A stretch of DNA of 64,000 nucleotides, taken from positions 1 to 64,000 of the forward strand of contig NZ_NINX01000043.1 of NCBI RefSeq assembly GCF_002188635.1, in the 5' to 3' direction. Origin of the DNA: Pigmentiphaga sp. NML030171 (GTDB taxonomy: Bacteria > Pseudomonadota > Gammaproteobacteria > Burkholderiales > Burkholderiaceae_B). The notes under the pieces were generated by a model. That model searched no databases. It was not told where the DNA came from and was given only the letters and a program-made list of their open reading frames with translations. Both the position numbers and the translations under genes were made by a program. Shown in pieces: positions 1,213 through 60,995 of this stretch (positions are counted from its first letter, which is position 1; every line of letters starts with the position of its first letter).

Positions 1213-1328
1213 CCCCCCTACGCCCTTCGGGCGATGGGGAAACCCACCCCCTACGCGCTGACGCGCGCCCCCTCAAGGGGGCGATGCGGGTGGACCGGCA
1301 AAGCCGGATCCACCGCATCCTGGGCCTA
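1213..1328 (-). repeat. Intergenic GC-rich repeat, copy 1 (reverse orientation)
   Basis: First copy of a structured repeat found seven times in the window. It contains CCCCCCTACG next to the dnaX start, a GCGCTGACGCGC mini-hairpin, a CCCCCTCAAGGGGG hairpin, and a long imperfect stem (GATGCGGGTGGACCGGC pairing with GCCGGATCCACCGCATC). It faces copy 2 at 1409-1490, so the pair forms a large inverted repeat around the core at about 1360-1408. No coding potential is evident. Confidence 0.85.
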
Positions 1329-1408
1329 ACCCCTTTGCCCTGATTTTGGGGCACCCATTTACCGCTGCTGCCAGCGAAGCACCGGTGCCCCAACCCAAGA
1401 AACCGGCC

Positions 1409-1490
1409 CTAGACCCAGGGCACAGCGGATCCGGCTTTGCCGGTCCGCCAGTGCCGCCCCCTGGGGGGCGCCCGAAGGGCGTAGGGGGGG
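1409..1490 (+). repeat. Intergenic GC-rich repeat, copy 2 (forward orientation)
   Basis: Forward copy beginning CTAGACCCAGG and ending in a run of seven G. The G-run stops three bases before the TATAAT of the ffs promoter, so the repeat occupies the place of the -35 region. The preceding core (about 1360-1408, with CCAGCGAAGCAC and AACCCAAGAAAC) recurs at about 60863-60916 in the other composite palindrome. Confidence 0.85.
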
Positions 1491-1493
1491 TGC

Positions 1494-1499
1494 TATAAT
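1494..1499 (+). promoter_or_regulatory. ffs promoter -10 box
   Basis: A perfect TATAAT lies seven bases before the predicted 5' end of the 4.5S RNA. No TTGACA-like -35 exists at the right distance; that position (about 1471-1476) lies inside the repeat's CCCGAAGGGC segment. Confidence 0.75.
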
Positions 1500-1506
1500 T
1501 CTTATT

Positions 1507-1604
1507 GGCGGGCCCCTTCGCATGGCGGAGCGGTGAACCTGGTCAGGTCGGGAACGAAGCAGCCATAGCTGTAAACCGTCAGTGCCGAAGTCAGGCTCGC
1601 CACC
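1507..1604 (+). ncRNA. ffs: 4.5S signal recognition particle RNA, bacterial small type
   Basis: RNA component of the SRP, which binds Ffh and targets nascent membrane proteins. The conserved apical domain is visible as GGTCAGGTCGGGAACGAAGC followed by AGCC. The 5' end GGCGGGCC pairs (with G-U pairs) with GGCTCGCC near 1594-1602, closing a single hairpin of about 98 nt, normal for the small bacterial type. A TATAAT box sits just upstream. The dnaX-proximal position is common in proteobacteria. The ends are estimated from the terminal pairing. Confidence 0.93.
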
Positions 1605-1925
1605 CAATTCCCTTGTCCTGGGCTCTAAAAACCACACTAGCCGGACAGGCTCTTGGAAAAACCGCTTTTTTGCGGTTACCATTGGTTTATCTCGGGCTCT
1701 ACGCCGACCGATTCCGGCGCCTACCTGCCCCGCTCCCCTCGCGTTTCGCGCTTCCCACGCATCGCCCAGGGGTACTCCCGTCAGGATCCGCGCATATAAA
1801 AAAATTCCCCTCAGGGGTCTGGAATCCAAGCACACGCGCCCACATATATCTATCGAATCACATACCCGTTTACCGCGCACTGCACCACTCTTCCCGCGCT
1901 TTGCGCACACCTCAGAAGGAAAACC
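1605..1925. other. Gene-free region between ffs and trxA
   Basis: No credible gene is seen in these 321 bases. A small hairpin AACCGC-N6-GCGGTT (1660-1677) has a T-rich loop rather than a following T-tract, so it is only a weak terminator candidate for ffs. The stretch from about 1795 to 1920 is less GC-rich than its surroundings and probably carries the trxA promoter and leader. AGAAGGAAAACC just before 1926 supplies a ribosome-binding site. Confidence 0.6.
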
Positions 1926-2252
1926 ATGAGCGACGCGATCAAGCACGTGAGCGACTCCAGCTTCGATGCCGACGTACTTCAAGCCAATGAGCCTGTCCTG
2001 GTCGATTACTGGGCAGAATGGTGCGGTCCCTGCAAGATGATCGCCCCCATCCTGGAAGAGGCCGCCTCCCAGTACAAGGGCAAGCTGACGGTCGCCAAGC
2101 TGAACGTCGACGACAACAACGCCACGGCCGCCAAGTACGGCATCCGCGGCATTCCGACCCTGATGCTGTTCAAGAACGGCCAGGTCGTGGCCACCAAGGT
2201 GGGCGCGCTGTCCAAGTCGCAGCTCACCGCCTTCCTGGACAGCTCGCTGTAA
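1926..2252 (+). CDS. trxA: Thioredoxin 1
   Basis: Small cytoplasmic dithiol-disulfide oxidoreductase that donates electrons to ribonucleotide reductase, methionine sulfoxide reductases and other targets. The 108-residue protein has the exact family length. It carries the active-site motif [10 protein letters not shown] near residues 29-38, the following helix region, and the cis-proline segment [12 protein letters not shown] near residue 75. An AAGGAAAACC ribosome-binding site precedes the ATG. A hairpin terminator follows. The gene order trxA-rho is widespread in beta- and gammaproteobacteria. Confidence 0.98.
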
Positions 2253-2268
2253 GCAGGTAGCACGACAC

Positions 2269-2292
2269 GGACCGGCCCAGAGCCGGTCCTTT
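2269..2292 (+). terminator. Terminator after trxA
   Basis: GGACCGGC pairs with GCCGGTCC across a short loop and is followed by TTTCC. The T-tract is weak, so termination may be partial and allow read-through into rho. Confidence 0.6.
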
Positions 2293-2447
2293 CCGATCAA
2301 CCTTTACCACGCCCTCTCCTTGCGCACCGGCGGCGCGCCCCGGCCTCGGGATCCAGCCCTCCGCCCCAAGAGCACCAGACTCCCTGCGCAAAGTCCTCCC
2401 ACGAGGACGTGTCACCACCAAGAACTCCCCCCGGAGCTTTACCCGAG

Positions 2448-3704
2448 ATGCATCTCAATGAACTGAAGGCGCTGCACGTTTCGCAACTGCTGGAAATGGC
2501 CGCCACGCTCGAGATCGAGAATGCCAGCCGCCTGCGCAAGCAGGAGCTGATGTTTGCCATCATGAAGCGGCGCGCCAAGCAGGGCGAGCCAATCTTCGGC
2601 GATGGCGTACTGGAAGTGCTGCCCGACGGTTTCGGCTTCCTGCGTTCGCCCGAAACGTCCTACCTCGCCAGCACCGACGATATCTACATATCGCCTTCCC
2701 AGATCCGGCGCTTCAACCTGCATACCGGCGACTCCATCGAGGGCGAGGTCCGCACTCCCAAGGACGGCGAACGCTACTTCGCCCTGGTGAAGGTGGACAA
2801 GGTCAACGGCCAGGCGCCCGAGACCATGAAGCACCGCATCATGTTCGAGAACCTGACGCCGCTGCATCCGAACAAGCCGCTGCGCCTCGAACGCGACATC
2901 AAGAGCGAAGAAAACCTGACCGGCCGGATCATGGACATCTTCGCCCCCATCGGCAAGGGCCAGCGCGGCCTGCTGGTGGCAAGCCCGAAATCGGGCAAGA
3001 CGGTGATGATGCAGCACATCGCGCATGCCATCACCGCCAACCATCCCGACGTCACGATGATCGTCCTGATGATCGACGAACGTCCGGAAGAAGTGACCGA
3101 AATGCAGCGCTCGGTGCGCGGCGAAGTGGTCGCCTCCACCTTCGACGAACCCGCCACCCGCCACGTGCAGGTGGCCGAGATGGTCATCGAGAAGGCCAAG
3201 CGCCTGGTCGAGCTCAAGCACGACGTCGTCATCCTGCTCGACTCCATCACCCGCCTGGCCCGCGCCTACAACACCGTGGTGCCCGCCTCCGGCAAGGTCC
3301 TGACCGGCGGCGTCGACGCCAACGCCCTGCAGCGGCCCAAGCGCTTCTTCGGCGCGGCCCGCAACATCGAGGAAGGCGGCTCGCTCACCATCATCGGCAC
3401 CGCCCTGATCGAAACGGGCAGCCGCATGGACGACGTGATCTACGAAGAGTTCAAGGGCACCGGCAACAGCGAAGTCCACCTGGAACGCCGCCTGGCCGAG
3501 AAGCGCGTCTACCCCGCCATCAACCTGAACAAGTCCGGCACCCGCCGCGAAGAGCTGCTGATCAAGCCGGACGTGCTGCAGAAGGTGTGGGTGCTGCGCA
3601 AGTTCATCTTCGACATGGACGAGATCCAGTCCATGGAATTCATCCTGGACAAGATGCGCTCGACGAAGAACAACGCCGAGTTCTTCGACATGATGAAAAA
3701 ATAG
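2448..3704 (+). CDS. rho: Transcription termination factor Rho
   Basis: Hexameric RNA-dependent ATPase and helicase that terminates untranslated transcripts. The start at 2448 ([12 protein letters not shown]) is chosen because it matches the family N-terminus and has GGAG about 11 bases upstream; an in-frame ATG at 2409 would add 13 atypical residues. The 418-residue product matches the usual length. It has the N-terminal Rho domain, an RNA-binding cold-shock-like segment (GFGFLRSPE), the Walker A motif [10 protein letters not shown], the Walker B region [17 protein letters not shown], and the Q-loop/R-loop segment. The stop codon is followed one base later by a repeat copy. Confidence 0.98.
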
Positions 3705-3862
3705 GTCCCCCCTACGCGCTTCGCGCGCCCAGTATGGTGAGCCCCCAGCCGCTACGCGGCAGCCCCCCGAGGGGGCCGGGACCCGCCTTGGGGCGGCCCG
3801 GCGCCGGGTCCCGGGGGGCGATGCGGGTGGCCGGCGGAGCCGGATCCACCGCATCCTGGGGT
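3705..3862 (-). repeat. Intergenic GC-rich repeat, copy 3, abutting the rho stop
   Basis: The CCCCCCTACGCGC end begins two bases after the rho stop. The copy carries the CGCGCTTCGCGCG mini-hairpin, an extra insertion of about 60 bases rich in GGGCCGG/CCGGCCC stems (about 3740-3818), and the terminal GATGCGGGTGG...CCACCGCATCC stem. It could serve as a terminator or a 3'-end stabiliser for the rho message; no T-tract is present. Confidence 0.8.
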
Positions 3863-3979
3863 ACTACCAGGCTGGTGGGGCGTGGCGTTCTTGCATGCCG
3901 CCATCTCCCCCACCTCACTTCCGCCTTCCCCCACGTTTTCTGCCCTCCTTGCTCTCTTCCCGGCCAACTTCCGCCGGAG

Positions 3980-4212
3980 GCCGTCTCCTGGGCGGGCGCA
4001 GCCCCGTGGGCGCATTGGAGCCGCCGGTGTCGGCACGGTTGGCGGGGAAGCAAGGGCGCAGCTGTTTGAGCACGGCTTTCGGGGTAGCCCAGTGGGCTAC
4101 CCCGGTGCGAGTTCTGCGCCCGCCCCGCCAACCGTGCCGACACCGGGTAGTCCCGGCAACGCCGGGACCGGCTCCGTTGCGCCCACGGGGCTGCGCCCGC
4201 CCAGGAGACGGC
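3980..4212. repeat. 233-bp complex inverted repeat between rho and rpmE
   Basis: The outer arms 3980-4014 and 4178-4212 are perfect 35-base inverted copies (starting GCCGTCTCCTGGGCGGGCGC). A second pair, 4024-4047 and 4123-4146, is a perfect 24-base inverted match. A third pair is GGGCGCAG (4054) and CTGCGCCC (4114). The centre, 4081-4103, is a 10-bp hairpin with a three-base loop (GGGGTAGCCC, GGGCTACCCC). An extra hairpin TCCCGGC-AAC-GCCGGGA sits at 4151-4167, in the right arm only. No open reading frame looks real here. It resembles a REP/BIME-type or mini-transposon element of a different family from the other repeats. Confidence 0.9.
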
Positions 4213-4282
4213 CGGATAAAGAACCCGATCGCCTCGTCAAGCGATGCCTTTGAAGCGCAAAACGCCCAAAACATCGTACTGA

Positions 4283-4311
4283 TTGCACAAATCCGGGAAT
4301 CCCGCGATAAT
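4283..4311 (+). promoter_or_regulatory. Sigma-70 promoter for rpmE
   Basis: TTGCAC (4283-4288), a 17-base spacer, and GATAAT (4306-4311). Transcription would start near 4318 and give a leader of about 150 nt before the L31 start codon, long enough for regulation, though no known leader fold was recognised. Confidence 0.65.
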
Positions 4312-4470
4312 TTACGGCTTAGCTCTAGAAATTGGGCACGTTGTCGGGCCGGCGCTCCGTCCAGCAGTAAACACACGGAAGCCGCCATAAAGGAACCCCC
4401 CCTGGGGAAAACCGCCCCCAAGGCGCAAACCTTCGTCCGGCTGGCGACCCGCATACTCCCAAGGAAGACC

Positions 4471-4737
4471 ATGAAAGAAGGCATCCACCCCGAATACCGC
4501 GACGTCGTGTTCCAGGATCTGCAGACCGGCAACAAGTTCATTACCCGCTCGACCCTGAACACGCGCGAAACCATCGAACTCGATGGCAAGACCTACCCGC
4601 TGTTCAAGTGCGACGTGACCTCGGAATCGCACCCCTTCTACACCGGCGCGCAAACCCGCATCGTGGAAACCGGCCGCGTCGAGAAGTTCCGCGCCCGTTT
4701 CGCCCGCACCACCGGCGCCGGCAAGACGTCCGCCTGA
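4471..4737 (+). CDS. rpmE2: 50S ribosomal protein L31, type B
   Basis: Large-subunit ribosomal protein. The 88-residue product starts [16 protein letters not shown], the type-B signature, and lacks the paired CxxC zinc ligands of type-A L31; a single Cys is seen in [10 protein letters not shown]. Type-B forms are zinc-independent and in several bacteria are used under zinc shortage. AAGGAAGACC precedes the ATG. A strong terminator follows. No Zur-like palindrome was recognised in the leader, so a zinc response is not supported here, and this may be the only L31. Confidence 0.94.
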
Positions 4738-4758
4738 CGGCACCGTCCGCGCACCCAG

Positions 4759-4785
4759 AAGGCAGCCTGCGGGCTGCCTTTTTTC
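4759..4785 (+). terminator. Rho-independent terminator after L31
   Basis: AAGGCAGCC and GGCTGCCTT form a 9-bp stem with a short loop, followed by a run of T and then CTGCG. This is the best canonical terminator on the plus strand of the window. Confidence 0.9.
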
Positions 4786-4949
4786 TGCGCCCTGCTTGCG
4801 CTCGCCCGGCCGGGGTTCATGGCGCGGGAATCCGCCCGCCGCTGCAATTGCTTGCAATCCGGCTTCGCATTCCGCCATTTTTTGCGTGTCGCGGCCTGCC
4901 GGGACACTAGAATCCGTCTTGTCGCCTGTTAGGTAATCCCAGCGGTTCG

Positions 4950-6752
4950 ATGCCTCACCGATTCCCGTCGCCCTTCCATACGTCCATCCTGCCGCCCACC
5001 CCCGCGCGGCTGACCGCGCTCGCGGCAACCAAGCTGCCGCGCTGGGGCCTGCTGGCCCTGTGCCTGTTGTACATCGTGACCGGCCTGGTCATGCGCGAAC
5101 CCTGGAAGAGCGAAGACGTCATCGGCCTGGCGCAGATGTGGTCCGCCTACGATGGCGGCTGGGCGCAATGGCTGGCGCCCGAGGCGGCCGGCGTGGCGGT
5201 GTCGCAGGAAGGCCCCCTGGCGACGTGGGTGGGCGCGCTGTGCATGGCCGTCTTCTCGCCGCTGCTGGGGCACATCCTGGCGGCGCGCGTCCCCAACCTC
5301 ATCTGGTTCGGCATCGCCAGCACCAGCCTCTGGTACGGCGCCTACCTGCTGGGCCGGCGAGCCGAGGCCCAGCCGCTGGCGCTGCCCTTTGGCGGCCAGC
5401 CCGAACCGCGCGACTACGGCCGCATGCTGGCCGACGCCGCGCTGCTCCTGCTGCTGGCCACCCTGGGCATATTGTGGCGGTCCCACGAGACCTCCGCCGA
5501 GCCGGCCGCGCTCGCCTTCCACGCGCTCGCCTTCTATTCCCTCGCGCGGATGCTCGACCATCCCCGCTCCGGCGCGCTGACGCTGGGGCTTGCGCTGGGC
5601 GGCGCATTCCTGGCGCGAGGCTTCCCCGCCGTCATGCCGCAATTGCTGGCCGTCGCGGTCCTGGCCGGCACCAGCCCGGCGCTGCGGCCCGCCGTGCGCT
5701 GGATCGCGCTGCTGAGCCTGCCGCTGGGCCTGGCGCTGTCGCTGGCCTGGTGGATCGCCACCGCGCAGCTCCACCCCTATTGGATGAGCGGCTGGTGGCA
5801 CTGGAACGCCAGCGTGTTCGGGATGCTGACCCCGCGCGGACTGTCGGACGCGCTGCGCAACATGCCGTGGTTCCTGTGGCCCACCGGACCGCTCGCGCTG
5901 CTCGCGCTCTGGCGGTGGCGTGGATACCTGCTCTCGCCCCACGTGCAGATCCCGGCAGCGCTGATGCTGGCGGGCCTGGCCATGCTGCTCGCCACCCGCG
6001 AGCCGGTCGATGCGGAATACCTGGCGCTGGTCATCCCCTGCGCGATGCTGGGCGCACTCGCGCTGCCCACGCTGCGGCGGGGCCTGATCAACGCCCTGGA
6101 CTGGTTTGCCGTCATGGTGTTCTCGGCAACCGCCTGCGTGGTCTGGATGGGATGGATCGCCATCATGACCGGCGTACCGCCCAAGATCGCCCGCAACATC
6201 GCCCGCCAGACCCCGGGCTTCGACGCCGATTTCTCGCTGTTCGCCTTCACCGCCGCGGTCGCGGCCAGCCTGGCCTGGATCGCGCTGATCATCTGGCGCT
6301 TCCGCTCGCGCCCCACCGGGCTGTGGCGCGGAACGGTGCTGTCGGCGGGCGGCGTGGTCGCGTGCTGGCTGCTGATCATGACGTTGTGGCTGCCCTCGAT
6401 CAACTACAACAAGAGCTACCGCGAGGTCTCGAACGGCATGGCGCATGCCCTGGCCGCCGAGCGGGTCCGCACGGGCCGGCAGGAATGCGTGCGCAGCTCG
6501 GGCCTGGGGCTGTCGCAGCGCGCCTCGTTCGCGGTCTTCGACAACCTGCGCTTCGAGCTGTCCGGCGACTGCCCCCTCGTCCTGCTGCAAGGCAACGCCA
6601 GCGTACTGCGCAACGTGCTCCAGCGCGGCGAGTACGCCGGCAGCCGCGTGCTGTGGGAAGGCACCCGGGCGGCGGAATTCCGCCGCGCGCCCCAGTTCCG
6701 CGAGTATTTCATCCTGCTGCGCCCGGCCCCGGCCGGGCGTCCCGCCTCGTGA
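4950..6752 (+). CDS. ArnT-like GT-C fold membrane glycosyltransferase
   Basis: A 600-residue inner-membrane protein with roughly a dozen hydrophobic segments. After the first membrane segment the loop contains REPWKSED, resembling the acidic catalytic loop of GT-C enzymes (ArnT/PMT families), which move sugars from polyprenyl-phosphate donors to lipid A or proteins on the periplasmic side. The C-terminal 120 residues form a soluble domain with several Cys (RQECVRSS, SGDCPLVLL). The stop overlaps the next gene's GTG (GTGA), so the two are translationally coupled. Acceptor and donor cannot be inferred. Family call is good, specific function unknown. Confidence 0.8.
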   Translation: MPHRFPSPFHTSILPPTPARLTALAATKLPRWGLLALCLLYIVTGLVMREPWKSEDVIGLAQMWSAYDGGWAQWLAPEAAGVAVSQEGPLATWVGALCMAVFSPLLGHILAARVPNLIWFGIASTSLWYGAYLLGRRAEAQPLALPFGGQPEPRDYGRMLADAALLLLLATLGILWRSHETSAEPAALAFHALAFYSLARMLDHPRSGALTLGLALGGAFLARGFPAVMPQLLAVAVLAGTSPALRPAVRWIALLSLPLGLALSLAWWIATAQLHPYWMSGWWHWNASVFGMLTPRGLSDALRNMPWFLWPTGPLALLALWRWRGYLLSPHVQIPAALMLAGLAMLLATREPVDAEYLALVIPCAMLGALALPTLRRGLINALDWFAVMVFSATACVVWMGWIAIMTGVPPKIARNIARQTPGFDADFSLFAFTAAVAASLAWIALIIWRFRSRPTGLWRGTVLSAGGVVACWLLIMTLWLPSINYNKSYREVSNGMAHALAAERVRTGRQECVRSSGLGLSQRASFAVFDNLRFELSGDCPLVLLQGNASVLRNVLQRGEYAGSRVLWEGTRAAEFRRAPQFREYFILLRPAPAGRPAS

Positions 6753-8721: not shown

Positions 8722-8885
8722 ATAATCGGTGCTCCGGAACCATGCATGATCGCGCGCGCGGCGCCAGGACGGCGGCGCGGGCACAAATGGCAATTTTCTC
8801 ACAGGCTGGCGCCTCCTCTTTCCGAACCCGCACCGGGGTCCGTCGGGGCTTGTGCGTACGCCCCCCCTGACTACGAGCCGTCATT

Positions 8886-11439: not shown

Positions 11440-11547
11440 GCCTTCAGAACCTGAAGAAATATCCGATCGGCGAAACAATCGTTTGGCGTTATGGTGTTCG
11501 GCGGTACGCTCGGGGGAATCCTCCAAGCGTCCCTTCAGGAGCATTCC

Positions 11548-50431: not shown

Positions 50432-50450
50432 GTCGATCACCGCGCGATGC

Positions 50451-51230: not shown

Positions 51231-51293
51231 TGCTACTCCAATCGATCCCATGACTACAAGCGGGAAAAACGCCGGCCATCGTCAGCCGGATGG

Positions 51294-51369
51294 TGCCCCG
51301 GGGGCACGGCGGATCCGGCTTTGCCGGTCCGTCAGTGCCGCCCCCTTGAGGGGGCGTAGGGGGTGGGTC
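51294..51369 (+). repeat. Intergenic GC-rich repeat, copy 4, abutting the livF stop
   Basis: The short form has GGATCCGGCTTTGCCGGTCC and CCCCCTTGAGGGGG hairpins, and ends in GTAGGGGGTGGGTC directly before the livF stop (read on the minus strand, the C-rich end follows the stop by three bases). The CGCGC mini-hairpin is missing in this copy. Confidence 0.85.
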
Positions 51370-52065
51370 CTAGACGCCGACGTACTGGGCGATCAGCTCG
51401 GGACGTGCCGAGAGTTCCGGCGACGTGCCGCGCCAGACCGTCACGCCCTTGTCCAGGATGAAGTTGCGGTCGGACAAGCGCAGCAGGGCCTTGGTGTTCT
51501 TGTCCACCACGATCATGGTCAGGCCTTCCTGCTTGAGCTGGGCCAGCACGCTCCAGATCTCGGCGCGCACGATGGGGGCCAGGCCCTCGGTGGCTTCGTC
51601 CAGCACCAGCAGGCGGGGGTTGGTCATCAGCGCGCGGCCGATGGCCAGCATCTGCTGCTCGCCACCCGACAACTGCGTGCCGAGGTTGGAGCGCCGCTCC
51701 TTCAGGCGCGGGAACAGGCCGTAGATCTTGTCCAGCGTCCAGGCCGAGGCGTCGGTGCGCTTGGACGTGGCGATCAGGTTTTCCTCCACGGTCAGCGTGG
51801 GGAATATCTGGCGCCCTTCCGGCACCAGCGACAGTCCCAGCCGGCCCACGCGGTACGGCGCCATGCCGTTCAGCGTCTGCCCGTCGAAAGTGATGCTGCC
51901 GGCCGCCGGCTTGAGCAGGCCGAACAGGCAGTTGATCACCGTCGTGCGCCCCATGCCGTTACGGCCGATCAGGCCCACGACCTCGCCGCGCTTGACCTCC
52001 ATGTCGATGTCGAACAGTGCCTGGCAGGAACCGTACTTGGCCGCCAGTCCTTGTATGGAAAGCAT
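51370..52065 (-). CDS. livF: Branched-chain-type ABC transporter ATPase LivF
   Basis: A 231-residue ATPase of the LIV family. Signature LSGGEQQMLAIGRAL, Walker B LLVLDEATEGLAP, and H-loop region MIVVDKN instead of the usual VEQN/H form. The Walker A motif reads GRNGMGRTT, so residue 40 is Arg where Lys binds the nucleotide phosphates. The H-loop His is also absent, though this is common in LivF (which often has VEQN). It is the last gene of the LivH-M-G-F set, followed by a repeat. Confidence 0.93.
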   Translation of the reverse strand: MLSIQGLAAKYGSCQALFDIDMEVKRGEVVGLIGRNGMGRTTVINCLFGLLKPAAGSITFDGQTLNGMAPYRVGRLGLSLVPEGRQIFPTLTVEENLIATSKRTDASAWTLDKIYGLFPRLKERRSNLGTQLSGGEQQMLAIGRALMTNPRLLVLDEATEGLAPIVRAEIWSVLAQLKQEGLTMIVVDKNTKALLRLSDRNFILDKGVTVWRGTSPELSARPELIAQYVGV

Positions 52066-52080
52066 GCGTGAACTCCTGCC

Positions 52081-52832
<752 letters not shown>

Positions 52833-52836
<4 letters not shown>

Positions 52837-53843: not shown

Positions 53844-53879
53844 ATCGTCTACCTTGCAGGAATATCAGTTACCGCCGCA

Positions 53880-53963
53880 ACCAGACCCAGGGCACCGCGG
53901 ATCCGGCTCCGCCGGTCCGTCAGTGCCGCCCCCTGGGGGGCGCGCGAAGCGCGTAGGGGGGGC
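53880..53963 (+). repeat. Intergenic GC-rich repeat, copy 5, abutting the livH stop
   Basis: Short form with GCGGATCCGGCTCCGCCGG hairpin, CCCCCTGGGGGG, and CGCGCGAAGCGCG mini-hairpin; it ends in a G-run immediately before the livH stop, that is, the C-rich end follows the stop by one base on the minus strand. It lies inside the transport operon. Confidence 0.85.
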
Positions 53964-54878
53964 CTACTTCTTGTTCAGGATGCCATTGGGGCGGAAAGCC
54001 AGCACCAGCGCCATCAGCACATAGATCAGCATGGAGGCCATGGCCGGGCCGACGGCGTTGGCCGAGGCGGGCTGCATGAACGAGCCGAGCAGGTGCGGAA
54101 TGTAGGCGCGCCCCAGCGTATCGATCACGGCGATGATCATCGCCGCCACCAATGCGCCGCGGATGGACCCGATACCGCCCACCACGATGACCACCAGCGC
54201 AAGGATCAGGACCGGTTCGCCCATGCCGGACTGCACCGACAGGATGGGCCCGGCCAGCGCGCCAGCCAGTCCCGCCAGCCCCGCCCCGAGCATGAACAGC
54301 AGTTTCTTGAGCAGGTCGATGTTCACGCCCAGCACGCTGACCATGGGCGAATTGCTGGCGCCGGCGCGGATCAGCATGCCGAAGCGCGTCTTCTGGATCA
54401 GGTACCAGGCACCCAGCGCCACCAGCACGCCGACCGCGATGATCAGGATCCGGTAGACGGGATACTGCGACCCGAACAGCGTCACGGCGCCGTCCAGCGC
54501 CGACGGAATGGCCGCGTAGTAGGGACGGTTGCCGAAGATGACGATGGCCAGCTCGTTGAAGAACATCATCAGGCCGAAGGTCGCGAGCACCTGGTACAGG
54601 TGGTCGTGCCGGTACAGCGGCTTGGCGACCAGGTGCTCCAGCAGCAGCCCCACCAGCCCGGCCGAGATGATGGCCGCGGCGATGGCGAAGATGAAGGACC
54701 CGCTCGCGTTGTAGGTGGCGGCGCCGATGAACGCGCCGACCATGTACAGCGAACCGTGCGCGAGATTGATGAAATTCATGATGCCGAAGATCAGGGTCAA
54801 CCCTGATGACAGCAGGAACAACAAGACGCCGAGCTGCACACCATTGAGCAACTGCGACAAAAACAGCGAACTATTCAT
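53964..54878 (-). CDS. livH: Branched-chain-type ABC transporter permease LivH
   Basis: A 304-residue membrane protein with about eight segments and family motifs GVQLGVLLFLLSSGLTLIFGIMNFINLAHG (start region, shortened here to LTLIFGIMNFINLAHG) and IGSIRGALVAAMIIAVID. Lies between the receptor gene and livM, each gap occupied by a repeat copy. Confidence 0.94.
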   Translation of the reverse strand: MNSSLFLSQLLNGVQLGVLLFLLSSGLTLIFGIMNFINLAHGSLYMVGAFIGAATYNASGSFIFAIAAAIISAGLVGLLLEHLVAKPLYRHDHLYQVLATFGLMMFFNELAIVIFGNRPYYAAIPSALDGAVTLFGSQYPVYRILIIAVGVLVALGAWYLIQKTRFGMLIRAGASNSPMVSVLGVNIDLLKKLLFMLGAGLAGLAGALAGPILSVQSGMGEPVLILALVVIVVGGIGSIRGALVAAMIIAVIDTLGRAYIPHLLGSFMQPASANAVGPAMASMLIYVLMALVLAFRPNGILNKK

Positions 54879-55050
54879 TGACAGACTTCCGTGTCAAAAC
54901 CCGGGTCTTCCCCGCATACCCGGTTCTTTCGTTCTTAGTGCCCATGCACTCCCCGATCCCGTGGCGGCGATCGCCACCCAGCATACCGGCGCCCGCCCCC
55001 ATCATCCATCGGTGCCACCCCTGAAAGGGAAGCCCCAACCCAGGATAAGG

Positions 55051-55173
55051 GACCTAGACCCAGGATGCGGTGGATCCGGCTCCGCCGGTCCACCCGCATC
55101 GCCCCCTTGAGGGGGCGCCCGAAGGGCGTAGGGGGTGGGCTTTCCTTGCGCGCGTAAGCGCGTAGGGGGGGGT
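55051..55173 (+). repeat. Intergenic GC-rich repeat, copy 6, abutting the receptor stop
   Basis: Full form: CTAGACCCAGGATGCGG, the long stem GATGCGGTGGATCCGGC with GCCGGTCCACCCGCATC, CCCCCTTGAGGGGG, GCCCGAAGGGC, then a second G-run and GCGCGTAAGCGC before the final G-run. The C-rich end follows the receptor stop by one base on the minus strand. Partial core sequence (CCCCAACCCAGG) precedes it at about 55034. Confidence 0.85.
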
Positions 55174-56337
55174 CTACATCTTGCATTCAGCCGCGTACGC
55201 GTCCTTGTGGTCCGTCAGGACCTGCGACAGTTGCTTGTAGCCCACGCCGTCGCCGTTCTTGACGATCTCGTAGGCGTAGTAGTGCTGGATGGGCATGTTG
55301 TTGGTGTTGAAGGCGAACTTGCCACGGGCCGTGGGGAACTTGGAGCCGGCTTCCTTGACGGCGGCCGCGAAGGCCTTCTTGTTCGACACCTTGCCGCCCA
55401 GCTTGGTGATGGCGGCATCCAGCAGGTAGGCGGCGTCATAGGCGGCCACCGCGTACTCGGTGGGGGGACGCTTGTACTTGGCTTCGTAGCCCGACACGAA
55501 TTTCTTGTTCTGCGGATTGTCGAGCACCGGCGCCCACGGCGTGCCGTAGATCGAACCGACCGCCTGCTGCTTGAGCGCGGCCAGCGAGTTGGAATCGATC
55601 AGGCTCTCGGACAGGAACGGCAGCTTGCCCATCAGGCCGGCCTGGTTCAACTGGCGCACGAAGTTCACGCCCACGCCGCCGGGATAGAACACGAACAGGG
55701 CATCCGGCTTGGCGCTCTGGACGGCGGCGATCTCGGCCGCGTAGTCGAGCTGGCCCAGCGGGGTGTAGACCTCGTTCTGGATCGCGCCGCCGTAGAAGCG
55801 CTTGAAGCCGGCCAGCTTGTCCTTGCCGGCCTGGTAGTTCGACGTCATCAGGTAGACGTTCTTGTAGCCCTGTTCCTTGGCGTACTTGCCCATGGCTTCG
55901 GACATGCCGTCGTTCTGCCACCCCATCACGAACAGGTTGGCCATGCAGCCCTTGCCGGCGATCGGGGCCGGACCGGCGTTGGTCGACAGCGCGACGACGC
56001 CCGAATCCTTGATGCGGCGGGTCTCGGCCATCAGCACGTTCGAGAAGCCCAGCCCGACGATGGCGTCGACCTTGTCGCGCTCGATGAACTTCTGGACGAT
56101 CTGCGCGCCGACGTCCGGCTTGAGCTGGTCATCCTCGCGCAGCACGGTCACGGGCTGGCCGCCCAGCTTGCCGCCCAGTTGCTCGACAGCCAGCATGAAG
56201 CCGTCGTACTGGTCCTGGCCCAGCGCCGCCATGGGGCCCGACAGCACCCCGGAAAAACCGATCTTGACCTCGGCGTGCGCGGCGCCGGCAACCATCAGGG
56301 CCGCCGCGACCAGTACGGCGGTTTGCTTCTTCATCAT
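55174..56337 (-). CDS. Branched-chain-type ABC substrate-binding protein C
   Basis: A 387-residue exported receptor: signal peptide to GAAHA, then EVKIGFSGVLSGPMAALGQDQYDGFMLAV and C-terminal AAECKM. It precedes livH and has all membrane and ATPase partners after it, so it is the receptor of this transporter. It is a paralogue of the two orphan receptors at 30950 and 32217. Its placement after the tautomerase and HMSD genes suggests an aromatic or ring-derived acid as ligand. Confidence 0.94.
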   Translation of the reverse strand: MMKKQTAVLVAAALMVAGAAHAEVKIGFSGVLSGPMAALGQDQYDGFMLAVEQLGGKLGGQPVTVLREDDQLKPDVGAQIVQKFIERDKVDAIVGLGFSNVLMAETRRIKDSGVVALSTNAGPAPIAGKGCMANLFVMGWQNDGMSEAMGKYAKEQGYKNVYLMTSNYQAGKDKLAGFKRFYGGAIQNEVYTPLGQLDYAAEIAAVQSAKPDALFVFYPGGVGVNFVRQLNQAGLMGKLPFLSESLIDSNSLAALKQQAVGSIYGTPWAPVLDNPQNKKFVSGYEAKYKRPPTEYAVAAYDAAYLLDAAITKLGGKVSNKKAFAAAVKEAGSKFPTARGKFAFNTNNMPIQHYYAYEIVKNGDGVGYKQLSQVLTDHKDAYAAECKM

Positions 56338-56372
56338 CGACTATGTCTCCTTCGTCGGGAAATAGCGGGAAA

Positions 56373-56564
56373 TCAGCGCCCCAGCGCCTTGGCGGTCTTG
56401 CCGCCTATCCCGAAATTCGTCTTGGGCACTTCGACCAGCACCACGCGCACGGACTCGCGGGGAGCGCCGATGGCGCGGTGGGTCGCTTCGGTCAACTCCT
56501 CGATCAGGGCCGCGCGCTGTTCGTCGGTGCGGCCCTCCATCATTTGCACCTGGATGAGGGGCAT
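56373..56564 (-). CDS. 4-oxalocrotonate tautomerase
   Basis: Isomerises 2-hydroxymuconate to 2-oxohex-3-enedioate. The 63-residue protein, after Met removal, has Pro1, Arg11, Arg39 and Phe50, the four known 4-OT catalytic positions (PLIQVQMMEGR, ESVRVVL, NFGIGG). The length is exact for the family. It starts 11 bases after the HMSD stop, so it is next in the ring-cleavage operon. Confidence 0.93.
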   Translation of the reverse strand: MPLIQVQMMEGRTDEQRAALIEELTEATHRAIGAPRESVRVVLVEVPKTNFGIGGKTAKALGR

Positions 56565-56574
56565 GGCGAGCTCC

Positions 56575-58029
56575 TTACAGTTTCACGCAGACGTTGCGCA
56601 GTTCGGTGTAGAACTCCAGCGAGTGCACCCCGCCCTCGCGGCCGATGCCCGACTGCTTGGCGCCGCCGAACGACGTGCGCAGGTCGCGCAGGAACCACGA
56701 GTTGACCCAGCAGATACCGACGTTCAAGGCCTTGCCCAGGCGATGGGCGGTCCCCACGTTCTGCGTCCACACCGTGGCGGCCAGGCCGTACGGCGTGTCG
56801 TTGGCCATCTTGATGACTTCTTCCTCGGTGTCGAAGGGCGTGATGTGGCAGCAGGGTCCGAAGATCTCCTCGCGGATCACGGCGGCCGTCTCGGGCAGGC
56901 CGGTCCAGATCGTGGGCTGCACCCAGGCGCCCTCGGACATCTTGCCGGGCATGTCGGGCACGCCGCCGCCGGTGACGATGGTGGCGCCTTCCTCGCGGGC
57001 CTTGGCGTAATAGCTCAGGACCTTCTCGCGATGCACCTGCGAGACCAGCGGACCGAAATTGGTGGCGTGGTCGTGCGGATCGCCCAGCTTGAACGACTCG
57101 GCCTTGGCCTTGAGCGCGGCAACGAACTTCTCGAAGATGGGGCGCTGCACGTAGACGCGCTCGGTACCCAGGCACACCTGGCCGCTGTTCTCGAACGCGG
57201 AACGGGCGATGCCGGCGACAGCCTTGTCGAAATCGGCGTCGGCGAACACGATGCCGGGGTTCTTGCCGCCCAGTTCGAACGACACCGGGCGCACGCCCTT
57301 GGCGGCGGCCTTCATGATGGCTTCGCCGGTACGGGTCTCGCCGGTGAAGGTAATGCCGTCCACGTCGGGATGCTGGGTCAGGAATTCGCCGGCGGAGTCC
57401 GGGCCGAAACCGTGGACGACGTTGTAGACGCCGGGCGGCACGCCGACCTCGTTCATCACCTCGCCCAGCAGCGTGGCGGTAGCCGGGGTTTCCTCGGACG
57501 GCTTGACCACGACGGTGTTGCCGCAGGCCAGGGCCGGGCCGACCTTCCAGGTCATCAGGAGCAGCGGCAGGTTCCACGGGCAGACCACGCCGATGACGCC
57601 GCGCGGCACGCGTACCGCGTAGTTCAGCGCGAAGCCGTTGTCAGGAGTCTCCATGTCGAAGCTTTCGCCCGGCACATTGCGGATCAGGTCGGCGAAGACC
57701 TTGAAGTTGGCGGCGCCGCGAGGGATGTCGACATGGCTGGCGAGCACGTGGGGCTTGCCGGTATCGGCCATCTCGGCCGCCAGGAAATCGTCGAACCGGC
57801 GGTTGATGCCGTCGGCGATGGCGTGCAGCATTTCCACCCGCTGCTGCACTTTCATGGTCGCCCACGGGCCCGACAGGGCGGCGCGCGCGGCCTTGACGGC
57901 GGCATCGACTTCGGCACGGCCGGCCTCGTGCACGGGACCGATCAGGCTGTTGTCGACGGGGTTGCGGTTCTCGAAGGTCTTGCCGGTGGCGACCCACTGG
58001 CCGTTGATGAAATTCTTGAATTCGTTCAT
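56575..58029 (-). CDS. 2-hydroxymuconate semialdehyde dehydrogenase (HMSD), copy 2
   Basis: A 484-residue aldehyde dehydrogenase of the same group as the copy at 20171. Features are CPWNLPLLLMTWKVGPAL, KPSEETPATATLLG, FTGETRTGEAIMKA, catalytic Glu in ELGGKNPG, and catalytic Cys in SGQVCLGTERVYVQRP. The start at 58029 (MNEFKNFINGQW) fits the family; the frame is open further upstream but runs into the class II aldolase-like gene. Together with 4-OT and the extradiol enzyme it marks an oxalocrotonate branch. The paralogues may act on different semialdehydes. Confidence 0.92.
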   Translation of the reverse strand: MNEFKNFINGQWVATGKTFENRNPVDNSLIGPVHEAGRAEVDAAVKAARAALSGPWATMKVQQRVEMLHAIADGINRRFDDFLAAEMADTGKPHVLASHVDIPRGAANFKVFADLIRNVPGESFDMETPDNGFALNYAVRVPRGVIGVVCPWNLPLLLMTWKVGPALACGNTVVVKPSEETPATATLLGEVMNEVGVPPGVYNVVHGFGPDSAGEFLTQHPDVDGITFTGETRTGEAIMKAAAKGVRPVSFELGGKNPGIVFADADFDKAVAGIARSAFENSGQVCLGTERVYVQRPIFEKFVAALKAKAESFKLGDPHDHATNFGPLVSQVHREKVLSYYAKAREEGATIVTGGGVPDMPGKMSEGAWVQPTIWTGLPETAAVIREEIFGPCCHITPFDTEEEVIKMANDTPYGLAATVWTQNVGTAHRLGKALNVGICWVNSWFLRDLRTSFGGAKQSGIGREGGVHSLEFYTELRNVCVKL

Positions 58030-58039
58030 GGCTGTATTC

Positions 58040-58741
58040 TCAGATGACGTTTGCAAATTCGGGATCGCCGTCGCACAGGTATTCCCACATGCGTTCGAAG
58101 ATGCGGCCTGCGCCGGTGGCACGGCGGGCCGCCTCTTCCGGCGACAGCGTCGGGCCGTCGGCCAATCCGGCCGCGCGCAGTTGCAGCTCGATGCGCGCGG
58201 CGTCTTCCAGGTACCAGTTCAGCACCACCGCCTGCTCGATATTGGGCGCGGCTACCACCGCGCCGTTGCCGCGCATGACCACGGCCGCGGCGGTGCCCAG
58301 CTTCGCGGCCACGCCGGCGGCCTGCTCGTCGGTGCGGATCAGTTGCGGATCGTCCCAGAGCGGGACGGCCGGCGAGAAATACGAGCCCATGCCATGGCGC
58401 GGCGCCGGCGTCACGCGCGCGGACGACAGGGTCATCACGTCGCGCGGCATGCTGCGGATCACCGCCCCGACCTCGGGCCGCAAGCGATAGATGTGCTGGT
58501 GGATGCGGACTTCCCCCAGCACGCCTTCGGGCAGTTCGCCGCGAACCGGGACCACGGTGCCGTCCTCGTGCGGACCGATCATGCCCATGGGCTTGGCGGC
58601 GCACACCAGGAAACGGTCGGCATCCAGCCGCAGGCTGCAATGGCCGTAGGCATGGACCAGGTTGGCGCGCGCCAGGGCGCGGGCAGCCGCCCGCACCAGG
58701 CTCTGCTGCCGGGCGGTCGGTGCGTTGTCGTGCTGGCTCAA
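58040..58741 (-). CDS. Class II aldolase/adducin-family protein lacking the metal histidines
   Basis: A 233-residue protein. A TTG start at 58741 overlaps the preceding stop (TTGA) and has GGAG eight bases upstream; an ATG at 58777 is possible but would overlap the previous gene more. The fold is clear: ARANLVHAYGHCSLRL, GEVRIHQHIYRLRPEVGAV. Aligned to L-fuculose-phosphate aldolase, Glu77 is kept but the HxH pair is R96 and M98 (VIRSMPRD), and the third His is N159 (RGNGAV). Family members include sugar aldolases and dihydroxyphthalate decarboxylases. With its metal site altered, its chemistry is uncertain. Confidence 0.82.
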   Translation of the reverse strand: MSQHDNAPTARQQSLVRAAARALARANLVHAYGHCSLRLDADRFLVCAAKPMGMIGPHEDGTVVPVRGELPEGVLGEVRIHQHIYRLRPEVGAVIRSMPRDVMTLSSARVTPAPRHGMGSYFSPAVPLWDDPQLIRTDEQAAGVAAKLGTAAAVVMRGNGAVVAAPNIEQAVVLNWYLEDAARIELQLRAAGLADGPTLSPEEAARRATGAGRIFERMWEYLCDGDPEFANVI

Positions 58742-59601
58742 GTCTTGAACTCCGGAATATCGGGTTTGGATCCCCACATGCAGAACGACGACGGGATGGC
58801 AGGGAAAGTGCGGGGACGGTAGGTCTTCTCGTCCTCTTCCGTGATCAGGCGCACGCCCGTCGAGTATTCGTAGATCATGCCGTCCGGTCCCTCGAAATAC
58901 AGGAACATCGCGCCCGAGGTCGGATGGCGGCCCGGGCCGAAGCGGATGGGGATGCGCTTCTCCAGCAGGATGTAATAGGCCCGCATCACGTCGTCGATGC
59001 TCTCGACCTGATGGTTGATGTGCTGCACGCCGGGGTAGCTGGACGGGAACAGCGCGATCTTGTGATGCACTTCGTCGATGCGCAGCAGGGGCGCTTCGCC
59101 GATGCGGTCGCTGACCTTGGCGCTGAGCAGCTGGGTCCAGAAGGCTTCGTCGCGGCGGGGATTCAGGGTGCGCAGGCCGATGTGGCTGAATCCCGTGATG
59201 CCCGCGTCGCGCGACGGGAAATAGCGGCGGCCGCTATGGTGCGGCGCATGGACCAGGTCGACGCTGTTGCCCGACGGGTCCTTGAAGTTGATGAAGTCGC
59301 GCACGTGGCGCTTCTCGGCTTCCTCGACGCTGCCGCGGGTGGCCGCGTAGCCCGACTGCTCCAGCAGCACCATGGCCTGGTCGAGTTCTTCGGGCGTGTC
59401 GACCTCGAAGGCCGAGGTGTGGTCACGCGGATCACCTTCGAAATAGCAGAGCGTGTGATCGCGGCTGTCGGACTTCAGGTAGACCGCCTTGCCGACGCGG
59501 CGGGCCACTTCCAGACCCAGGACTTCGGTTGCATAGCGCACCGAACCTTCCAGGTCGGGCGTGCCCAGCCGCACGTAGCGGATGTCGTGTAGATGAATCA
59601 C
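58738..59601 (-). CDS. Extradiol ring-cleavage dioxygenase (VOC, catechol 2,3-dioxygenase type)
   Basis: A 287-residue two-domain VOC enzyme. The GTG at 59601 has GGAG six bases upstream. Iron ligands are H140 (GFSHIGL), H197 (INHQVES) and E245 (MIYEYSTG), positioned as in BphC/catechol 2,3-dioxygenases. The first domain lacks them. It opens the ring operon with the class II aldolase-like gene, HMSD and 4-OT behind it. The ring substrate, probably a catechol or 2-aminophenol-type compound, is unknown. Confidence 0.9.
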   Translation of the reverse strand: MIHLHDIRYVRLGTPDLEGSVRYATEVLGLEVARRVGKAVYLKSDSRDHTLCYFEGDPRDHTSAFEVDTPEELDQAMVLLEQSGYAATRGSVEEAEKRHVRDFINFKDPSGNSVDLVHAPHHSGRRYFPSRDAGITGFSHIGLRTLNPRRDEAFWTQLLSAKVSDRIGEAPLLRIDEVHHKIALFPSSYPGVQHINHQVESIDDVMRAYYILLEKRIPIRFGPGRHPTSGAMFLYFEGPDGMIYEYSTGVRLITEEDEKTYRPRTFPAIPSSFCMWGSKPDIPEFKT

Positions 59602-59665
59602 CGGTGTCTCCAGCTGGGGGCCGTGAAAGCCCCCTGCACTTTCGTAGGCGGACACGATACGCCAC

Positions 59666-59688
59666 AAAATATCGGTTGGAAATATTTT
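59666..59688. promoter_or_regulatory. AT-rich dyad in the ring operon / gntR intergenic region
   Basis: AAAATAT and ATATTTT are perfect 7-bp arms with a nine-base spacer, 65-87 bases upstream of the extradiol start. A second short dyad CTAGA-A-TCTAG is at 59741-59751, nearer the gntR start. Either could be the GntR operator. Confidence 0.5.
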
Positions 59689-59791
59689 TATCGAGATTTT
59701 ATGGATTTCCCTAATGCCCGGGGATTTCATCGAGAATCGACTAGAATCTAGCCATCGCTCATGAGAGGGGGCACCCAGCCGCCCGAGACGC

Positions 59792-60538
59792 ATGCCTGGA
59801 ATCCCATTGGAACTACCGCCCCTGGCCCACGCAGCCGCCCCCACCACGCTCGTGGGCACGGCCTATGCCGCCCTGCGGCGCGACATCATCGAAGGCAAGC
59901 TTGCGCCGGGCTCGCGCCTGCGCGTGGAACACCTGAAGGATTCCTATGGAGTCGGCGCCGGCACGCTGCGCGAGGCGCTGTCGCTGCTGGTGTCCGATGC
60001 GCTGGTGGTCTCCCACGGCCAGCGCGGCTTCCATGTCACGCCCATCTCCATGGAAGATTTCCTGGACATCACCCGCAATCGCATCCTGCTGGAGTGCGAA
60101 GCGCTGCGGCAGGCCATCCAGGCCGGCGACGACGTCTGGGAAAGCCGCATCATCGCCGCCTTCCACCGCCTGAGCCGGGCCGAGGAACGCCTTGCCACGA
60201 ATCCGGTCAACCGCTTCGACGAGTGGGAAGACCGCAACCGCGAGTTCCACCAGGCGCTGATCAGCGCCTGTACGTCACGCTGGATGCACCACTTCCTGGG
60301 CATCCTGTACCAGCAGGCGGAGCGCTACCGGCGGCTGGTCGTCACGCGCAAGCCCATTCCGCGCGACGTGCACGACGAGCACCGCAACATCCTGGAGGCC
60401 TCGCTGGCGCGGGACGGCGAACGCGCCGGCCAATTGCTGTCCGAGCACATCAGCACGACCTACGAGGCGGTCAAGCACCTGCCGGCGGACCTGTTCACGA
60501 ACGTCACGCCCATCGCCGACGGCGCGGCGGCGCCGTAG
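59792..60538 (+). CDS. GntR family regulator (FCD subfamily)
   Basis: A 248-residue regulator. The winged-helix N-terminus is AYAALRRDIIEGKLAPGSRLRVEHLKDSYGV in outline (core RDIIEGKLAPGSRL, and GTLREALSLLVSDALV), followed by the all-helical FCD effector domain with metal-binding style residues (DITRNRILLECEAL, HQALISACTSRWM, DEHRNILEASLARD). Divergent from the extradiol operon, which it probably represses until the aromatic substrate or a ring product is present. Confidence 0.93.
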   Translation: MPGIPLELPPLAHAAAPTTLVGTAYAALRRDIIEGKLAPGSRLRVEHLKDSYGVGAGTLREALSLLVSDALVVSHGQRGFHVTPISMEDFLDITRNRILLECEALRQAIQAGDDVWESRIIAAFHRLSRAEERLATNPVNRFDEWEDRNREFHQALISACTSRWMHHFLGILYQQAERYRRLVVTRKPIPRDVHDEHRNILEASLARDGERAGQLLSEHISTTYEAVKHLPADLFTNVTPIADGAAAP

Positions 60539-60595
60539 GGCTCCGCCCGGGGACTTTGCCCTCCCCCGTATTACGCCTGCCTATCAAACGGACAT

Positions 60596-60624
60596 AAAAA
60601 AGGCGGTGCCCAAAGACACCGCCC
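60596..60624 (-). terminator. Rho-independent terminator for the minus-strand Rieske operon
   Basis: Read on the minus strand: GGCGGTG-N8-CACCGCC (60602-60623) followed by six T (60601-60596). It lies between gntR and the repeat, 370 bases beyond the reductase stop, so the repeat would be transcribed before termination. Confidence 0.8.
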
Positions 60625-60644
60625 GACTCCCGCCCCCCTCGGCC

Positions 60645-60995
60645 CCAGGATGCGGTGGATCCGGCTCCGCCGGTCGGGGAAACCCACCCCCAAGCGGCCT
60701 TCGGCCGCGCCCCTCAAGGGGCGGCACTAGCGGACCGGCAGGAGAGCCCACCCCACGCGGCCTATGGCCGCGCCCCTCAAGGGGCGGCACTAGCGGACCG
60801 GCAAAGCCGGATCCGCGGCGCCCTGGATCTAGTACCGGTTTTTTGGTACGCCACACCGTTACTACCGCTGGCAGCCAGCGAAGCACGGCTGCCACAACCC
60901 AAGAAACGGGTACTAGACCCAGGATGCGGTGGATCCGGCTCCGCCGGTCCACCCGCATCGCCCCCTGGGGGGCGCGCGTCAGCGCGTAGGGGGGG
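60645..60995. repeat. Composite of the intergenic GC-rich repeat (copy 7), abutting the reductase stop
   Basis: A forward fragment (60648-60675), two tandem reverse units (about 60680-60830, sharing GGGGCGGCACTAGCGGACCGG), a core (about 60831-60916) and one full forward unit ending at 60995. The core shares CCAGCGAAGCAC and ACAACCCAAGAAAC with the core at about 1360-1408, and its outer bases TCTAGTACC and GGTACTAGA are inverted. The C-rich end follows the reductase stop with no gap. The area from 60625 to 60995 holds no gene. Confidence 0.85.

What the first reader, a model, noticed from the sequence alone, without database searches (positions are those of the whole stretch)
1213..60995. A family of GC-rich intergenic repeats with a fixed orientation to gene ends
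Seven copies (1213, 1409, 3705, 51294, 53880, 55051, 60645) share a layered layout: a C-run/TACG next to the gene, a CGCGC mini-hairpin, CCCCCNNNGGGGG, and GATGCGG...CCGCATC. In five of seven, the C-rich end is 0-3 bp from a stop codon and points away from that gene. The two others flank the dnaX start and the ffs promoter. The strict placement is not what random insertion would give. I recall similar repeats in Bordetella and Achromobacter, but no described function.
Basis: partly seen in the sequence, partly recalled or inferred. Interest (0 to 1): 0.75.

Follow-up and report, generated by a model that had tools for sequence, protein, structure and literature searches.

The report
Palindromic repeats abutting gene stop codons
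Bacteria of the genus Pigmentiphaga carry hundreds of copies of a GC-rich, self-folding DNA repeat that usually begins within a few letters of a gene's stop codon and points away from the gene; it is a relative in kind of the well-known REP repeats of E. coli, with an unusually strict position and pairing rule.

Summary
A covariance model from the window copies finds 116 distinct copies in 1.23 Mb of the host genome (genus Pigmentiphaga by inference, not Bordetella or Achromobacter). Of 109 outermost C-run ends, 80 face a stop codon; 55 of these start 0-8 nt after the stop and 13 were scored as carrying the stop inside the element. Uniform placement predicts about 8-13% at 0-8 nt. A second genus of the family shows the same rule (17 of 20 at 0-9 nt, read by eye). 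The unit is an ~85-nt hairpin array, alone or as outward-facing doublets with a conserved ~80-nt palindromic spacer; none of 26 doublets has two arms of one stem subtype (one arm untyped). A T plus purine tract precedes the C-run, and TAG is over-represented there. This is a REP/BIME/REPIN-like family, probably kin of the Bordetella Bor-1 repeats, without a RAYT transposase. Best reading: a formerly mobile miniature element whose hairpins, starting ~14 nt after the stop, now form the 3' UTR of the upstream mRNA. It is not an intrinsic terminator. Function is inferred: covariation comes largely from subtypes, and at orthologous loci most changes break pairs.

The parts
1213..1492 (.). Doublet between dnaX and ffs: extra 5' C-run/mini-hairpin unit (about 1213-1233), core 1243-1329 (+, GATGC subtype), palindromic spacer 1330-1408, core 1409-1492 (-, GGCAC subtype)
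1207..1212 (-). TACAAT, a -10-like hexamer on the dnaX strand directly outside the C-run (G-run on this strand)
   Evidence: consensus match only
1494..1499 (+). TATAAT, a -10-like hexamer upstream of ffs, 3 nt outside the G-run of the minus-strand copy
   Evidence: Rfam ffs at 1507-1604
3702..3857 (+). rho stop TAG (3702-3704), outer C-run at 3707, mini-hairpin, then an extended copy (model match 3801-3857)
51293..51372 (-). Solo copy; C-run 2 nt after the TAG (51370-51372) of an ABC ATPase gene; empty in G003 and G006
53881..53966 (-). Solo copy, C-run 1 nt after the TAG (53964-53966) of a BPD_transp_2 permease gene; G009 has another subtype at the same site; no copy in G002, G004, G005, G007 and G010
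55054..55176 (-). Solo copy with an extra 5' C-run unit; outer C-run 1 nt after the TAG (55174-55176) of the periplasmic binding-protein gene
60639..60998 (.). Composite: half-arm, truncated 5' half (60684-60738 +), core 60747-60832 (+), spacer, core 60913-60997 (-), C-run directly after the TGA of the gene 60996-61952 (-)

Best explanation
A REP/BIME-like family of non-autonomous palindromic elements. The unit, read from the gene outward, is: [T + purine tract]-[C-run]-TACG-mini-hairpin-CCCCC..GGGGG hairpin-16-bp main stem-CTGG(GTCTAG). It occurs as solos and as outward-facing heterotypic doublets of ~250 nt. Shown: anatomy, dispersal, direction, placement at stop codons, the heterotypic rule, sharing of most sites between species, and no RAYT in the genomes searched. 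Inferred: copies spread in the past by a mobility system not now recognisable. Insertion or retention favours gene ends, where the T-purine junction keeps or makes a stop codon. Each copy is transcribed as the 3' UTR of the upstream gene, with its first hairpin starting ~14 nt after the stop, where it acts on the message: blocking 3' exonucleases and possibly slowing terminating ribosomes, as reported for stop-proximal REPs of E. coli. It is not itself an intrinsic terminator.
For: 116 distinct copies in 1.228 Mb. Placement: 80 of 109 outer ends face a stop; 55 at 0-8 nt, 13 scored with the stop inside the element (one of these, C45:303716, is a mis-set end; the model puts that copy 4 nt after the stop), 12 farther; uniform null P(0-8 nt) 7.6% tandem, 13.3% convergent. 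Direction: solos between co-directional genes face the stop 32 to 10. Regions occupied: convergent 23 of 174, tandem 52 of 757, divergent 5 of 171. Junction: TAG 34 of 61 vs 231 of 1013 control stops, p=1e-7; purine run mean 3.55 (n=109) vs 1.41 (n=303). Doublets: of 36 neighbour pairs within 400 nt 29 are + -, none - +; 26 of 26 heterotypic, one with an untyped arm. Second genus: 17 of 20 stop-facing first-in-array ends at 0-9 nt (read by eye). Stop to first hairpin: median 14 nt, 57 of 61 parsed. Six element-sense folds have z -2.4 to -5.4 against shuffles; the one antisense fold has z -1.8.
Against: No expression data. G.U vs A.C mismatches give no consistent sense-strand preference (helix 4 34:23, but 10:23 without one column pair; helix 1 1:22; helix 2 1:1; helix 3 22:5). 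In same-subtype orthologs one-sided unpaired changes outnumber compensated ones (14 vs 2 in 25 comparisons taken by eye). No Y1_Tnp in own genome and only a 31-position match in 1 of 10 congeners. No gene recurs between copies except weak paralogue pairs of at most 43% identity; the 34 genes were not annotated. In the doublet flanks that I read by eye I saw no target duplication; no script tested this. The 5' flank and 3' end do not covary as a closing stem.
Confidence: 0.5

Rival explanations
1. A purely selfish or relic element: insertion is near random, selection removes copies from genes, promoters and 5' regions, and what survives sits at compact gene ends; no function.
For: Gaps at the four empty sites look short. 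4 of 37 anchored clusters are empty in a species about 94% identical, one more keeps only a fragment (C3:57846) and one is replaced by a 9.3-kb block. Changed pairs are mostly unpaired, not compensated, at orthologous loci.
Against: Uniform placement in element-free spacers gives 8-13% at 0-8 nt, observed 55 of 80. In the 32 end/start solos the other end lies a median 83 nt from the next start. Same bias in another genus.
Confidence: 0.27
2. DNA-level function (nucleoid, gyrase or IHF site, or recombination node); the hairpins matter as DNA, and gene ends are merely permissive.
For: No consistent RNA-strand asymmetry in mismatches. Arm subtypes are swapped between species at 1243/1409 and C55:229689/229853. 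The heterotypic rule fits avoidance of long perfect palindromes, an idea stated for REP dimers.
Against: Does not explain the directional, few-nucleotide link to stop codons. Divergent regions are avoided (5 of 171).
Confidence: 0.15
3. Transcription terminators for the upstream gene.
For: Strong GC hairpins right after the stop; enriched between convergent genes. All five doublets with 97-105-nt spacers enclose an intrinsic-terminator-like hairpin.
Against: No U tract directly follows the core. U-tract terminator-like hairpins co-occur rather than being replaced: within 200 nt in 12 of 33 convergent element ends vs 39 of 302 without; between co-directional genes there is no difference, 6 of 36 vs 54 of 283. 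Copies sit inside an operon (window 51-55 kb). In L289 the copy lies after a terminator-like hairpin with a U8 tract.
Confidence: 0.08

Closest known systems
REP sequences with GTAG/CGTC tags, and their dimers (PMC3733652; passages read)
   Same: Small palindromes, many copies, mostly between co-directional and convergent genes; dimers with tags outside and conserved spacers; some families only as heterodimers; in two species most convergent ones lie within 20 bp of both 3' ends; GTAG termini often give the TAG stop.
   Different: Unit ~85 nt with three hairpins and a C-run, not 20-40 nt with a fixed GTAG tag; stop-to-C-run distance varies (0-8 nt in 55 of 80); no full RAYT in the genus genomes searched.
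REPINs (PMC3116915; passages read)
   Same: Inverted doublets with a spacer form one hairpin unit; singlets may be remnants.
   Different: No RAYT found; doublet arms of different subtypes; doublets score higher than solos (bits 91.7 vs 85.4, p=6e-4) but their pairwise identity is not higher (0.789 vs 0.796). The paper's abstract calls doublets randomly distributed in extragenic space; here placement is strict.
Bor / Bor-1 repeats of Bordetella (PMC1590033, PMC2267715; passages read)
   Same: Bordetella belongs to the same bacterial family; Bor-1 is a 93-117-nt intergenic stem-loop family with 128-196 copies; Bor is said to share some similarity with E. coli REPs and to lie close to coding regions.
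BRE, beta-proteobacterial repeat element (PMC3110155; section 14 and passages read)
   Same: ~90 nt, GC-rich, mostly intergenic, tandem arrays; the genus of G015 also has tandem copies of the present family.
   Different: 8-22 copies per Bordetella genome, 69% GC on average; sequence not compared; the lexA locus of 7 searched genomes gave no model hit.
REPs within 15 nt of stop codons with effects on translation and mRNA life (PMC12306157; abstract and passages)
   Same: Distance class: first hairpin median 14 nt after the stop.
   Different: The effects are reported from E. coli; nothing was measured here.

Membership tests
REP (GTAG-tagged) | short palindrome, many intergenic copies | tested here: met
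   116 copies in 1.228 Mb, one lying inside a called gene; unit longer than usual
REP (GTAG-tagged) | unpaired GTAG tetranucleotide at one end | tested here: inconclusive
   GTAG within 12 nt of the C-run in 20 of 55 near-stop ends vs 93 of 1013 controls, but not at a fixed distance
REP/REPIN | RAYT (Y1_Tnp) in the genome, flanked by copies | tested here: not met
   no PF01797 match in own genome; 1 of 11 genus genomes (own included) has a 31-position match
REPIN / BIME | inverted doublets with conserved spacer | tested here: met
   29 of 36 neighbour pairs + -; among 23 doublets with both arms over 60 bits, 16 have spacers of 79-81 nt
BIME (heterotypic arms) | doublets combine different unit types | tested here: met
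   26 of 26 own (one arm untyped) and 15 of 15 in relatives, many orthologous to own; permutation 0 of 20000 for own
Bor-1 (Bordetella) | sequence match to the Bor consensus | not testable with these tools
BRE | sequence match; copies beside lexA in Bordetella | tested here: inconclusive
   no hit in 7 lexA loci; none of these genomes is known to be a Bordetella
Classical MITE (e.g. Correia) | target-site duplication | tested here: inconclusive
   none seen by eye in the doublet flanks printed; no script, and whole-site empties were found only for solos
Intrinsic terminator | hairpin followed directly by U tract | tested here: not met
   core ends CTGGGTCTAG with no U tract directly after it; terminator-like hairpins found elsewhere in some of the same gaps
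Rfam families | match above gathering score | tested here: not met
   only RF00169 in the window

The most novel reading that the evidence does not exclude
A mobile palindrome that recognises gene ends: its insertion chemistry joins a purine tract to a T at or within the stop codon (T+RR = TAA/TAG/TGA), so each directional insertion keeps or creates a stop and installs a ready-made 3' UTR. At two of four empty sites the stop is TGA at the codon where the occupied site has TAG (C55:149506, C7:65044; read by eye), and in L289 GAGTAGAGG precedes the C-run although it is not the stop.
Probability: 0.18. Interest if true: 0.72.

Novelty: new variant of a known kind. Interest (0 to 1): 0.45.

Why it matters
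REP-like repeats are common non-coding DNA in many bacteria, and why they sit at gene ends is unsettled. This family gives an unusually clean case: hundreds of copies (extrapolated), a sharp position and direction rule kept in two genera, a two-type rule for doublets without exception so far, species with empty sites, and no RAYT. It makes 'targeted insertion or selected 3' UTR part?' directly testable.

Tried and rejected
Gene finding: two first attempts failed by learning antisense frames; the seeded caller was used, and ten window genes give Pfam matches in the called frames (one was given a longer start than called).

Closing stem from stop codon/purine tract to the 3' CTAG end, suggested by single folds: rejected, real partners pair no better than shuffled ones (66 copies). 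RNA-strand selection from G.U vs A.C: no consistent preference. Tuned spacing from stop to hairpin: no compensation between distance and C-run length. Transposase partner: nothing found. A plasmid hit under a 'transposase' proved to be one diverged copy inside a frame whose only Pfam match is HTH_Tnp_1 at its start. A first automatic typing of stems was wrong and replaced. In one search (51 rows) some rows with many differences compare different arms of arrays; only the 25 same-subtype rows with 6 or fewer differences are used, taken by eye.

Limits: one search scored only 150 of 4732 first-look candidates; the copy number (~430) is extrapolated from 29 copies in 396,504 bases of C3 and C1. 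Stretches were mostly chosen because strong hits lie there, except the rest of C7. Of 116 copies there are 112 distinct outer ends; 3 were dropped because another copy lies between them and the gene; one outer end (C45:303716) is set wrongly by the motif rule. The -10 offsets (0-1) were chosen after looking. The second-genus sample is the 22 loci shown in the listing, from five of its six genomes; of 37 hits 3 weak ones were left out, and of those 34, 20 were used (8 inner array members, 4 start-facing and 2 duplicates left out), with distances read by eye. One overlapping weak pair (L149) was left out of the 15 relatives' doublets. That a cluster is occupied in G003 was judged from spans, alignments and model hits, not by one script.
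Full report
WHAT WAS CHECKED. A covariance model (R1, 84 positions, 25 pairs) finds seven full copies and several partial ones in the window. In 1,228,346 bases taken as stretches, 118 matches at E<=0.01 are 116 distinct copies. Contigs C3 and C1:1-200000, taken without regard to hits inside them, hold 29 in 396,504 bases, about 430 per genome by extrapolation.

HOST. Congener G003 has the contig lengths of P. kullae K24. The window is therefore from Pigmentiphaga (inference; its own record is not shown). A genome announcement gives 5.86 Mb for strain NML030171 (abstract only), which fits but is not proof. Copies are in 9 of 10 congeners, in 4 of 26 genomes from other genera of the family, and in none of 24 genomes from other families of the order (strict filters). 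One diverged copy lies on a Methylibium plasmid, so the family or a relative does occur outside; no phage record matched.

ANATOMY. From the gene outward: T + purine tract, C-run (median 7), TAC(G), a small GC hairpin, CCCCC/GGGGG hairpin, a 16-bp main stem with two bulges, CTGG(GTCTAG). Main stems fall into subtypes GGCRC (50), GATGC (39), GAAAC (12) and others or untyped (15) of 116. The 16 doublets with 79-81-nt spacers align over their whole length with a palindromic spacer. Of 36 neighbour pairs within 400 nt, 29 have both C-runs outward and none inward. No doublet has two arms of one subtype: 26 of 26 heterotypic (one arm untyped; permutation 0 of 20000) and 15 of 15 in relatives, many of them orthologous. 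The same behaviour is described for some REP dimers.

PLACEMENT. Genes were called with a codon-usage caller seeded from three window genes. Of 109 outermost C-run ends, 80 face a stop and 29 a start. The 80 stop distances are: 13 scored as inside the element (mostly TGA or TAA in the mini-hairpin loop; one, C45:303716, is a mis-set end that belongs at 4 nt), 55 at 0-8 nt, 6 at 10-17 nt, 6 at 49-276 nt. Uniform placement in element-free gaps predicts 7.6% (tandem) or 13.3% (convergent) at 0-8 nt; 55 of 80 against 13.3% gives p=6e-30. Solos (n=50): 32 end/start, 10 start/end, 6 end/end, 2 start/start. In the 32, the C-run lies a median 2 nt from the stop and the other end a median 83 nt from the next start. 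Convergent gaps are occupied most (23 of 174), tandem 52 of 757, divergent least (5 of 171). Doublets can fill the whole gap between convergent stops, for example 5 and 0 nt at C45:267398-267668.

JUNCTION. Adjacent stops are TAG 34, TGA 14, TAA 13, against TGA 672, TAG 231, TAA 110 in 1013 control genes (p=1e-7). The nucleotides between stop and C-run are 71% purine against 46% after control stops. Purine runs before the C-run average 3.55 at 109 ends against 1.41 at 303 other C-runs of six or more, and a T precedes them in 55 of 61 near-stop ends. Start-facing ends sometimes abut a -10-like hexamer (6 of 29 against 1 of 67 stop-facing ends at offset 0-1, p=0.003, offsets chosen after looking), including dnaX; at ffs the hexamer is 3 nt away.

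OTHER SPECIES. Of 38 clusters of C7, C3 and C55:100001-270372 compared with G003, 37 could be anchored. Four are empty there (C7:51293, C7:65044, C3:139156, C55:149506), one keeps only a fragment (C3:57846) and one is replaced by a 9.3-kb block. At 51293 the same TAG stands at the empty site in G003 and G006. At 65044 and 149506 the empty site has TGA at the codon that is TAG in the occupied gene. At 139156 the TGA of the empty site is absent and the called gene ends inside the element (alignments read by eye). Elsewhere subtypes change, singles become doublets or arms are swapped, in the alignments I read mostly with the outer junction unchanged. In five genomes of a second genus, where copies are diverged and often tandem, 17 of 20 stop-facing first-in-array ends lie 0-9 nt from the stop, one has the stop inside, and two are farther (read by eye).

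STRUCTURE EVIDENCE. Family-wide, 96.3% of cells pair, 11 of 25 pairs show changes on both sides, and none of 500 shuffles reaches any of the five measures; slid partners fail. The alignment was fitted to the model and the copies are related, so this overstates the independent evidence. Against a simple RNA reading: subtypes carry much of this signal; G.U and A.C mismatches give no consistent strand preference; and in 25 same-subtype orthologous comparisons with 6 or fewer differences (taken by eye) I count 14 one-sided changes without a pair in one species, 5 one-sided with the pair kept, 2 compensated and 1 double change without a pair. So the stems are real and palindromic, but selection on the RNA fold at single loci is not shown.

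MECHANISM. Not an intrinsic terminator: no U tract directly after the core. U-tract terminator-like hairpins occur beside copies (12 of 33 convergent element ends against 39 of 302 without; no difference between co-directional genes, 6 of 36 against 54 of 283; inside genes 23 of 552), and all five doublets with 97-105-nt spacers enclose one. The first hairpin starts a median 14 nt after the stop (57 of 61 parsed). For E. coli, REPs within 15 nt of an open reading frame are discussed as acting on translation, many as able to stall ribosomes at the stop, and REPs in 3' UTRs as prolonging mRNA life (PMC12306157, abstract and passages). The two-step reading, old mobility plus present 3'-UTR effect, is my best explanation at 0.5; function is inferred throughout. 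The tmRNA link and the malE-malF precedent are recalled and not from a call.

KNOWN RELATIVES. In two species most convergent REPs lie within 20 bp of both 3' ends, and GTAG termini often give the TAG stop. REPINs are inverted doublets thought to be moved by RAYTs. Bor-1 is a 93-117-nt intergenic family of Bordetella with 128-196 copies. BRE is a ~90-nt tandem repeat. The RAYT test fails here, so I do not file it as a REPIN. It works like a REP/BIME and is probably kin of Bor-1, which I could not test by sequence. Two paper searches, for Pigmentiphaga with palindromic repeats and for later work on BRE, listed no title on this family.

Noticed in passing
window 3979-4213: A separate 235-nt inverted repeat (45-nt arms, 96% complementary), absent at the orthologous place in G003, with five longer and one 57-nt similar stretch elsewhere in the fetched 1.23 Mb: a second, unrelated palindromic family.
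   Followed up: partly
G000:C7:128985-129251: Where the own genome has a doublet between convergent genes, G003 and G008 have a 9.3-kb block; no model hit lies in it in G003.
   Followed up: no
window 1243-1492; G000:C55:229689-229938: The two arm subtypes are swapped relative to G003 while the site is the same: the interior seems to have inverted between the arms.
   Followed up: partly
G000:C45:267398-267668, 281137-281408, 303744-304008; C55:27952-28221; C7:85702-85980: Five doublets with 97-105-nt spacers enclose an intrinsic-terminator-like hairpin between convergent genes.
   Followed up: partly
G000, e.g. C45:276158, C54:263877, C7:122155: When the C-run faces a start codon at 4-8 nt (7 of 29 start-facing ends), its complement, a G-run, lies where a Shine-Dalgarno sequence would be.
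   Followed up: no
G000, GAAAC-subtype copies: Eleven of twelve GAAAC-stem copies are doublet arms, while solos are mostly GGCRC and GATGC.
   Followed up: partly
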